35,864 nucleotides of DNA from Bacillota bacterium (lineage in GTDB: Bacteria > Bacillota > Clostridia > RUG12999). Position numbers and translations under genes: made by a program. This document shows positions 34,253-35,864 of the stretch, piece by piece (within the stretch, counting starts at the first letter, position 1; each line of letters begins with the position of its first letter). The DNA is taken from assembly GCA_030705675.1 (NCBI GenBank), contig JAUZPZ010000004.1, positions 1-35,864 on the forward strand, in the 5' to 3' direction. The notes under the pieces were generated by a model. It made no database searches, was not told the DNA's origin, and saw only the letters and a list, made by a program, of their open reading frames with translations.

Positions 34253-34990
34253 TTATAACCTTACCGAAATCACCAACAATATCATACACACCGCAAGTAT
34301 TGCCGCGTATATTCTAAACCCTATTTTGTTTTTATTCGCCGCGTTTAAATTTGCACGGCATAAAATGACAAGCAGTTCGTCATAATCTCCGTCCGCTATT
34401 TTGCCGCTTCTGTCCGCCCTTTTGAGAGTGTTTTTCTTTACACTGTTCTGCCTGTTTGCAATTCCAAGAGAAAACGCACAATAGAGCGCCGATACCGCAA
34501 GTAAAATTACACATACCGTTTTAAAAAACACGTTTCCCGTGCCTGAAACCGCCGCAAACATAATCATTATAGGCACTGCCGCTACCATTCCTGCCGCCAA
34601 AGCAAAAGTATTTCTGCTTTGCGTTTCAAACGCGGAGGTCTCCGCGCCGTAAACGATTGCCTTTATAAGTTTGTCAGTTTCCCGCAAAACAACTTTTTTA
34701 TCCTCAGGAGTTTCGTTTTGAGAGTTTGGCAGGGGCTGGGCATTTAATTCTGTTTTTAAAGGGTCGCCCTGCTCTTTAAAGAGCGCGACAGGAACTATAC
34801 TGTTGATTTTTTTTATTTCATATATAACATTTCCCGTTTCGGTAATAAGGGTAAGACCGTCATTTTCAATCCCCTTAATTGTACCTTCAACCACATTGCC
34901 GTTATTTAAATTTATACGAACCCTTCTGCCTGTCATTTCACCCAGCCTTTTATAGATGTCGTATGCATTCTCTAAAACTGTTTCCACCAT
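34253..34990 (-). CDS. Membrane protein with N-terminal Sm/SH3-like beta-barrel domain (unknown)
   Basis: This is a 245-residue protein I do not recognise as a named family. Residues about 15-68 (GRRVRINLNNGNVVEGTIKGIENDGLTLITETGNVIYEIKKINSI) have the strand-turn pattern of small Sm-like or SH3/BPL-C barrels: x-V-x-x-x-L-x-x-G, then G-x-I-x-G-I-x-x-D-G-L. A polar linker (72-100) and a helical segment follow. Then come two membrane helices (about 129-149 and 154-177), a charged cytoplasmic-looking loop (about 178-222) and a third membrane helix (225-243). AAGGGGTGA precedes the ATG. It is divergent from the CARF-type gene, with overlapping promoters. A link to nucleic-acid or small-ligand sensing at the membrane is possible but unproven. 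Confidence 0.8.
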   Translation of the reverse strand: MVETVLENAYDIYKRLGEMTGRRVRINLNNGNVVEGTIKGIENDGLTLITETGNVIYEIKKINSIVPVALFKEQGDPLKTELNAQPLPNSQNETPEDKKVVLRETDKLIKAIVYGAETSAFETQSRNTFALAAGMVAAVPIMIMFAAVSGTGNVFFKTVCVILLAVSALYCAFSLGIANRQNSVKKNTLKRADRSGKIADGDYDELLVILCRANLNAANKNKIGFRIYAAILAVCMILLVISVRL

Positions 34991-35081: not shown

Positions 35082-35105
35082 CATAATTTACCGGAGGAGT
35101 TTGCC

Positions 35106-35864
35106 ATGACTATTATTGAATACTACTCTGCCGCGGCAATAGAAAATGCCGTAACGAGCCTTTCCTTTAAGCCTGACAAAATGATTTTAATTTATGATAA
35201 CACCCTCCCGCGCGGACAAATTGAAACCGATGCGCAGCGTATTTATAATCTGTTGTACTCCCATAGCAGGAATTTTAAGAAAATTATTCCCGTGCCTGTA
35301 AATATTCGCGCCGTACGCGAAACCGCGGAAGTTCTTTACAATCTTGCGGAAGAATATAAAGACTGCACATTTGACCTTACCGGCGGCGACCGCCTTGTAA
35401 TGGTGTCAATGGGCATTGCGTATGAGCGTCTGCGCAGTCACAATGTACAGATGATAAGGTATGATATTGTAAACGGCGCTATTACCGATTACGACGGAGA
35501 CGGCAATATACCGCTGCTTATCAGACCGGAATATATTTCGGTTCCCGAAAGCATTTCCCTTTACGGGGGGCAATGCCGTTGGACGCGCGTAGAATACACA
35601 AAAGCTTTTTCAGACAACCTCATGGAGCTTTGGGAGATAAACAGAAAAAATCCCACAAAATGGAACAATAACACTTCGCTGGTTTCCAGAATGCGTAGCA
35701 AATCCCGAAATGAAAGCAATAATCCTCTTGTCATTACGGAGGATTATAACTTTTCGCTTAGTAAATTCAGTGCGCAGGAACGCGGGGAGCTTGATTCTTT
35801 TGTAAAAGAACTTATTCGGGAAAACATTCTTGTCAGGGACCAAAAAAACGGAAAAGAGATATGG
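35106..35864 (+). CDS. DUF1887/Card1-Can2-like CARF-domain protein, N-terminal part (runs off the window)
   Basis: These are the first 253 residues of an open frame with no stop before the window ends. GGAGGAG precedes the ATG at 35106. The N-terminal Rossmann-like half resembles DUF1887 CARF domains: TIIEYYSAAAIENAVTSL, KPDKMILIYDN, and above all TFDLTGGDRLVMVSMGIAYE (89-107), matching the conserved [DN]-[IL]-TGG-[TD]-[KR] ligand-binding turn of Card1/Can2. The following region (about 150-253) looks like the linker and winged-helix part. The PD-(D/E)xK-type nuclease expected at the C-terminus would lie off the window. Card1/Can2 nucleases are switched on by cyclic oligoadenylate in type III CRISPR systems, but many DUF1887 genes in Clostridia stand away from CRISPR loci. 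No cas gene or array is visible here. Confidence 0.78.
   Translation, partial: MTIIEYYSAAAIENAVTSLSFKPDKMILIYDNTLPRGQIETDAQRIYNLLYSHSRNFKKIIPVPVNIRAVRETAEVLYNLAEEYKDCTFDLTGGDRLVMVSMGIAYERLRSHNVQMIRYDIVNGAITDYDGDGNIPLLIRPEYISVPESISLYGGQCRWTRVEYTKAFSDNLMELWEINRKNPTKWNNNTSLVSRMRSKSRNESNNPLVITEDYNFSLSKFSAQERGELDSFVKELIRENILVRDQKNGKEIW

What the first reader, a model, noticed from the sequence alone, without database searches (positions are those of the whole stretch)
35106..35864. CARF/DUF1887-type protein with no visible CRISPR neighbours
The LTGGD turn with its flanking strands is the signature of the cyclic-oligonucleotide-binding CARF fold in DUF1887 (Card1/Can2) proteins. In type III CRISPR immunity these are activated by cyclic oligoadenylate. 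Here the gene begins at the window edge beside housekeeping genes, and no array or cas gene is visible within 35 kb to its left. It may belong to a system that starts just off the window, or be a free-standing CARF effector that senses another nucleotide signal.
Basis: partly seen in the sequence, partly recalled or inferred. Interest (0 to 1): 0.75.

Follow-up and report, generated by a model that had tools for sequence, protein, structure and literature searches.

The report
Orphan CARF–nuclease without its CRISPR system
A gut-type Clostridia genome carries a lone gene for a two-part protein, a sensor for small nucleotide signals joined to a DNA/RNA-cutting domain; such proteins normally work for a CRISPR immune system, but this genome shows no such system, so what switches the protein on is an open and testable question.

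Summary
The ORF from 35106 runs off the window. The last 141 bp of the window are identical to the start of contig C174 of the same assembly; joining them gives an intact 408-aa protein: CARF sensor plus PD-(D/E)xK nuclease, DUF1887/Card1-Can2 type (PADLOC CARF4–PDDEXK 3e-25; Pfam Card1_endonuc 2.5e-6). A model of the window's own residues matches the Can2 CARF domain (Z 16.2); a homologue's model matches VC1899 and Can2 over its full length (Z 31 and 27). The gene stands alone: no cas gene or array within 35 kb left or 11 kb right, and no Cas10, RAMP, mCpol or SMODS match in the genome. It belongs to a large Clostridia clade (48 of 391 class genomes), mostly orphan and not associated with Cas10. 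In all 91 aligned members the ExK glutamate of characterised relatives is serine (S-C-K), while E..ExD..K is invariant. One member ends a complete type III-B operon with an array, so the clade is CRISPR-related. A minority sit beside RyR-domain and channel-like genes, hinting at another signal. Orphan DUF1887 CARF proteins are known (VC1899); the S-C-K clade and these links are less familiar. Ligand and activity are untested.

The parts
35106..35864 (+). CARF–PD-(D/E)xK gene (DUF1887, Card1/Can2 type): first 253 of 408 codons; the rest (codons 254-408 and stop) is on contig C174, bases 142-609 (locus L003)
35106..35579 (+). CARF domain, residues 1-158
   Evidence: AlphaFold2 model of the window residues; VIA-align Z 16.2 to Can2 7bdv over residues 1-158
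35373..35390 (+). D-L-T-G-G-D turn (residues 90-95) of the CARF ligand pocket; R96 follows at the place of Can2 Lys99
35583..35864 (+). linker / helical subdomain between CARF and nuclease (residues 160-253); W186 and G154 conserved
35724..35864 (+). 141-bp stretch identical to the first 141 bp of contig C174 (assembly overlap that gives the continuation)
35093..35099 (+). Shine-Dalgarno-like GGAGGAG, 6 bases before the ATG
   Evidence: read directly in the sequence

Best explanation
It is a free-standing, single-gene member of the DUF1887 (Card1/Can2-type) CARF–PD-(D/E)xK family. By analogy with Can2 and VC1899 it should be a homodimer whose paired CARF domains form one pocket for a (cyclic) oligonucleotide or related nucleotide ligand; binding would close the two nuclease domains on nucleic acid and cause metal-dependent nicking or degradation, stressing or arresting the cell. 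In this genome the ligand is not made by a recognisable Cas10; either another nucleotide-producing pathway or an invader supplies it, or it acts when a mobile type III system is present. Shown: intact ORF, both domains, conserved E273, N311, E312, D314, K329, lack of CRISPR neighbours and lack of the tested synthetase families. Inferred: dimerisation, ligand class, nuclease activity and its regulation.
For: PADLOC CARF4–CARF_PDDEXK 3e-25 and Pfam Card1_endonuc 2.5e-6; full-length fold match of homologue L113 to VC1899 Z 31.1, Can2 Z 27.1, Cdn1 Z 25.6, Card1 Z 23.6; window's own CARF residues Z 16.2 to Can2; intact 408-aa ORF; catalytic positions invariant in 91 of 91 members, which argues for selection on the nuclease site; no cas gene or array around it or around nearly all homologues; no association with Cas10 over 391 genomes, 4 of 48 versus 46 of 343, p 0.49; precedent: VC1899 is an orphan DUF1887 CARF protein (PMC7969007).
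Against: No biochemistry. The ExK glutamate is Ser, so activity is not assured, and VC1899 itself showed only weak RNase activity not regulated by cA4 (PMC7969007). The CARF pocket keeps few of the Can2 cA4 contacts (S8, D31, R96, R118 for Ser19, Thr42, Lys99, Tyr118; alignment-based). The genome is a 225-contig draft, so a Cas10 gene could be missing from it.
Confidence: 0.6

Rival explanations
1. In-trans or part-time type III effector: the gene is a Can2-like ancillary nuclease that normally serves type III systems in related strains and is activated by cyclic oligoadenylate whenever a Cas10 is present in the pangenome.
For: L119 (uncultured Ruminococcus sp. RUG10751) has the same S-C-K clade gene as last gene of Cas6-Cmr1-Cas10b-Cmr3-Cmr4-Cmr5-Cmr6 with a CRISPR array 380 bp downstream; L122 has an array about 430 bp downstream of its copy; family-mate G005 has both an unlinked S-C-K CARF gene and a Cas10b/Cmr3/Cmr4/Cmr6 cluster.
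Against: Only 1 operonic case in 58 loci with flanks, only 4 of 48 CARF-positive genomes have Cas10, no positive association; own genome has no Cas10 or RAMP match.
Confidence: 0.25
2. Part of an RyR / channel-linked nucleotide-signalling conflict system: the CARF–nuclease works with a membrane TM–Rossmann(RCK-like)–RyR protein and a stand-alone RyR protein that sense or are gated by a related nucleotide.
For: About ten of 58 loci have the TM–Rossmann–RyR protein (c1) within a few genes, several directly adjacent; stand-alone RyR domain genes in 6 of 48 CARF-positive versus 4 of 343 other genomes, p 0.0004; c1 in 7 of 48 versus 11 of 343, p 0.003 including the kinase fusions and a partial hit; kinase–Rossmann–RyR–CARF–PD-(D/E)xK fusions in three genomes; potassium-channel gene 39 bp upstream of the DUF1887 CARF gene in Peptoclostridium acidaminophilum.
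Against: The window genome has neither RyR nor c1; without fusions and the partial hit the c1 association is weak (4 of 48 versus 11 of 343, p 0.098); p-values ignore phylogenetic relatedness; co-location may reflect shared defence islands.
Confidence: 0.12
3. Nuclease-dead or weakly active sensor: loss of the ExK glutamate turned the protein into a ligand binder or sponge, or into a weak unregulated RNase as reported for VC1899.
For: Glu to Ser at the ExK position in 91 of 91 members versus Glu in Can2, VC1899 and Cdn1; VC1899 weakly active in vitro even with Glu (PMC7969007).
Against: The other catalytic positions are strictly kept (E273, E312, D314, K329), which drift after loss of activity would not do; the restriction enzyme PfoI is described with the site E...ExD...K, its lysine being preceded by Ala with no ExK glutamate named (PMC6344858).
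Confidence: 0.15

Closest known systems
VC1899 of Vibrio cholerae (DUF1887, PDB 1XMX)
   Same: Best full-length fold match (Z 31.1); orphan CARF–PD-(D/E)xK protein with no type III system; Asp and Arg at two of the cA4-contact positions, as in the window protein (D31, R96)
   Different: About 18% identity; VC1899 has ECK, this clade has SCK; different phylum
Can2 / Card1 (type III CRISPR ancillary nucleases; 7BDV, 6XL1)
   Same: Same two-domain architecture and fold (Z 27.1 and 23.6); conserved E-x-D and Lys of the nuclease site; one clade member (L119) sits in a type III-B operon
   Different: Those are encoded with type III systems and activated by cA4; here no Cas10, Ser in place of ExK Glu, and most cA4-contact residues differ
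Cdn1 (CARF-domain dual-activated nuclease, 9U49/8Z4I)
   Same: Full-length fold match Z 25.6
   Different: CRISPR-associated, ECK motif, 12% identity
RtcR CARF regulator of RNA repair (PMC7790460)
   Same: Precedent for a CARF domain that works outside CRISPR
   Different: Transcription activator, no nuclease; compared from its abstract only

Membership tests
DUF1887 / CARF4 CARF–PD-(D/E)xK family | N-terminal CARF domain with TGG turn | tested here: met
   PADLOC CARF4–CARF_PDDEXK 3e-25; window model Z 16.2 to Can2 CARF
DUF1887 / CARF4 CARF–PD-(D/E)xK family | C-terminal Card1-like endonuclease domain | tested here: met
   PF09002 27.6 bits, cut-off 26.4; homologue L113 full-length fold
DUF1887 / CARF4 CARF–PD-(D/E)xK family | Complete E..ExD..ExK active site | tested here: not met
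   E273, E312, D314, K329 present, but the ExK Glu is Ser327. A variant active site; family membership itself rests on the profile and fold tests
Can2/Card1 as type III CRISPR ancillary effector | Encoded with, or in the same genome as, a Cas10 type III system | tested here: not met
   No Cas10 or RAMP match in the genome; no cas gene or array nearby. Draft genome, so absence is provisional; met by homologue L119
Can2/Card1 as type III CRISPR ancillary effector | cA4-binding residues Ser19, Thr42, Lys99, Tyr118 (Can2 numbering) | tested here: inconclusive
   By alignment S8, D31, R96, R118: one identical, one conservative; no ligand modelled
Can2/Card1 as type III CRISPR ancillary effector | cOA-activated nuclease activity | not testable with these tools
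   needs protein
Panoptes / CBASS-type signalling (mCpol, CD-NTase) | mCpol or SMODS nucleotidyl cyclase in the genome | tested here: not met
   PF18182 and PF18144: no match in the genome. In the 14 control genomes the mCpol search rang once, below cut-off, so its sensitivity is little tested
RyR / channel-like (c1) neighbourhood seen in some homologues | RyR domain gene and c1 gene in the genome | tested here: not met
   PF02026 and A5 profile: no match in G000, while both ring in other class genomes

The most novel reading that the evidence does not exclude
A large, mostly CRISPR-free clade of CARF-gated nucleases in gut Clostridia with a serine-variant (S-C-K) active site responds to a nucleotide signal made by a non-Cas10 pathway, in some lineages one shared with RyR-domain and membrane channel-like proteins, and forms an undescribed defence or stress-signalling system.
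Probability: 0.3. Interest if true: 0.8.

Novelty: new variant of a known kind. Interest (0 to 1): 0.5.

Why it matters
CARF proteins are understood almost only as receivers of Cas10-made cyclic oligoadenylates. Here is a widespread clade (12% of sampled class genomes) that keeps sensor and nuclease under strict conservation without any link to Cas10. Finding its ligand would either uncover a new nucleotide second messenger in gut bacteria or show that effectors can persist as in-trans servants of mobile CRISPR systems. The invariant S-C-K site also allows a direct test of how far the PD-(D/E)xK active site can change.

Tried and rejected
(1) System just off the window: rejected for 11.5 kb, contig C174 holds no cas gene. 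(2) Association with Cas10 in the class: rejected; strong hits first gave 3 of 48 versus 36 of 343 (p 0.45); after recognising that about 500-aa weak hits are Cas10d (III-D) the count became 4 of 48 versus 46 of 343 (p 0.49). Cas10d detection with PF22335 is weak, so the counts are lower bounds. (3) Conserved neighbour around 29 search loci: none enriched; PADLOC hits there were not accompanied by system partners and include SMC/ABC-type ATPases. (4) Link to CCA-adding enzyme suggested by a fusion ORF in L048: not repeated in other loci, dropped. (5) Phage or viral carriage: no match in phages or viral contigs. (6) search for related loci with the window protein alone found nothing, with A3 no conserved stretch; A4 worked. 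(7) Single-sequence PDB search gave only noise; profile search was needed. (8) Horizontal transfer by composition: gene GC 41.6% versus window 43.5%, uninformative. (10) Makarova 2020 CARF classification and the Card1 paper were not held, so prior notice of this clade could not be checked.

Full report
Observation. The ORF starts at ATG 35106 with a good ribosome-binding site and runs off the window. Searching the window's own genome (G000, 225 contigs, 1.92 Mb, completeness 100, contamination 5.99) with the 3' end showed that the last 141 bp of the window equal the first 141 bp of contig C174 and occur nowhere else, the usual sign of an assembly-graph overlap. The frame continues across the join and gives 408 aa. 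Homologues align continuously across it. The joined gene is an inference from this overlap, not a single contig.

Identity. The 253 window residues alone hit no Pfam family. The full protein hits PF09002 Card1_endonuc (2.5e-6, above cut-off) and PADLOC CARF4–CARF_PDDEXK (3e-25). Profiles of the family find Can2 (1.3e-19), VC1899 (9.5e-18), Cdn1 and a DUF1887 Can2. AlphaFold2 of homologue L113 (pLDDT 94.8) matches VC1899, Can2, Cdn1 and Card1 over its full length. A model of the window's own residues matches the CARF domain of Can2 and others.

Context. Left: rnhB and other housekeeping genes; a divergent gene at 34253-34990 with a weak BPL_C match. Right (C174): a small membrane-protein-like ORF, a 2'-5' RNA ligase-like ORF, and by reading the translations a gerA-type cluster and a FeoB-like gene. 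No cas gene, no array. No match in the genome to Cas10 palm, RAMP, mCpol, SMODS or RyR families. The absence is provisional in a draft genome, and PF22335 is a weak detector of Cas10d.

Distribution. Three congeners and genus g2 lack the gene; two genomes of a third genus of the family have it at about 30% identity, next to nad genes. In the class 48 of 391 genomes have a homologue. Named loci are Clostridia, Oscillospiraceae, Ruminococcus and similar, mostly from herbivore guts, plus Massiliimalia timonensis. The window protein's nearest relative is in another family (G085, 32%) rather than its family-mates: a patchy distribution by transfer or loss. No phage or viral relatives were found.

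Active site. In 91 of 91 aligned members the residues equivalent to E273, N311, E312, D314, S327, C328 and K329 are invariant. Can2, VC1899 and Cdn1 have E-C-K where this clade has S-C-K. The search favours close relatives, so E-C-K members outside the clade are not excluded; a fused CARF in G235 does have E-C-K and one in G350 has lost the lysine. The restriction enzyme PfoI is described with the site E...ExD...K (PMC6344858), the same pattern as here, so S-C-K need not mean inactive.

Ligand pocket. By alignment, Can2's cA4 contacts Ser19, Thr42, Lys99, Tyr118 correspond to S8, D31, R96, R118 here; in the clade the first is mostly Asp and the third mostly Glu or Asp. This holds also for the type III-B-linked L119 (D, N, D, R). 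The ligand or its binding mode may therefore differ from Can2; this is inference.

Link to CRISPR. L119 shows the clade gene directly after a complete type III-B operon with an active-type GGDD Cas10b and followed by a repeat array. L122 also has an array next to its copy. Against this, there is no association with Cas10 at genome level (4 of 48 versus 46 of 343) and no other linked case among the fetched loci.

Other links. About ten of 58 loci carry a 600-740-aa TM–Rossmann–RyR-like protein (c1) nearby, five a stand-alone RyR domain, some a double-AAA/M41 protein. Stand-alone RyR genes are enriched in CARF-positive genomes (6 of 48 versus 4 of 343, p 0.0004); c1 less clearly (p 0.003, or 0.098 without fusions and a partial hit). 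These p-values ignore relatedness, and the strong-RyR cut was chosen after seeing the hits. Three genomes have kinase–Rossmann–RyR–CARF–PD-(D/E)xK proteins of 1334-1412 aa. My memory that RyR domains have been proposed as nucleotide sensors in bacterial conflict systems (Burroughs and colleagues, 2015) could not be checked.

Verdict. A confirmed, ordinary-looking but unlinked DUF1887 CARF–nuclease, in a conserved, mostly CRISPR-free clade with a variant active site. Orphan CARF proteins of this family are known in VC1899 (PMC7969007). What is not known is the signal. Best reading: stand-alone nucleotide-gated nuclease (0.6); rivals: part-time type III effector, RyR/channel partner, weak or dead nuclease.

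Noticed in passing
L119:336-9420 (uncultured Ruminococcus sp. RUG10751, CACWNY010000009): Complete type III-B operon (Cas6, Cmr1, Cas10b, Cmr3-6) ending in an S-C-K CARF–nuclease gene, with a CRISPR array downstream.
   Followed up: yes
L106:4733-6529, L088:4527-6572, L115:8249-10435, L082:5060-6892 and others: Family c1: N-terminal membrane segments, two Rossmann/RCK-like domains and a C-terminal RyR-like LEHRRWNAYMR motif, no Pfam or PADLOC match, often beside the CARF gene.
   Followed up: partly
L140:7018-11253(-), L141:2656-6657, L142:2780-6856: Kinase–Rossmann–RyR-like–CARF–PD-(D/E)xK fusion proteins of 1334-1412 aa; in L142 preceded by a PP2C phosphatase and followed by a stand-alone RyR gene: looks like an undescribed kinase/phosphatase-controlled conflict system.
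   Followed up: partly
L048:6576-9056: CARF–PD-(D/E)xK read in frame into a CCA-adding tRNA nucleotidyltransferase (827 aa), single case.
   Followed up: partly
L087:6998-9097: CARF–PD-(D/E)xK read in frame into a metallo-beta-lactamase-like domain (699 aa), single case.
   Followed up: no
L143:6975-8951 (Peptoclostridium acidaminophilum plasmid NZ_CP007453.1): Potassium channel family gene directly upstream of a DUF1887 CARF gene with S-C-K motif, no CRISPR nearby.
   Followed up: partly
L144:6703-13786 (G164:C9): Type III-D Cas10d and Cas7/Csx10/Csx19 cluster in a CARF-positive genome, unlinked to its CARF gene; Cas10d scores poorly with PF22335.
   Followed up: partly
window 34253-34990 (-): Divergent neighbour gene: N-terminal SH3-like/BPL_C-type match followed by hydrophobic stretches, function unclear.
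   Followed up: no
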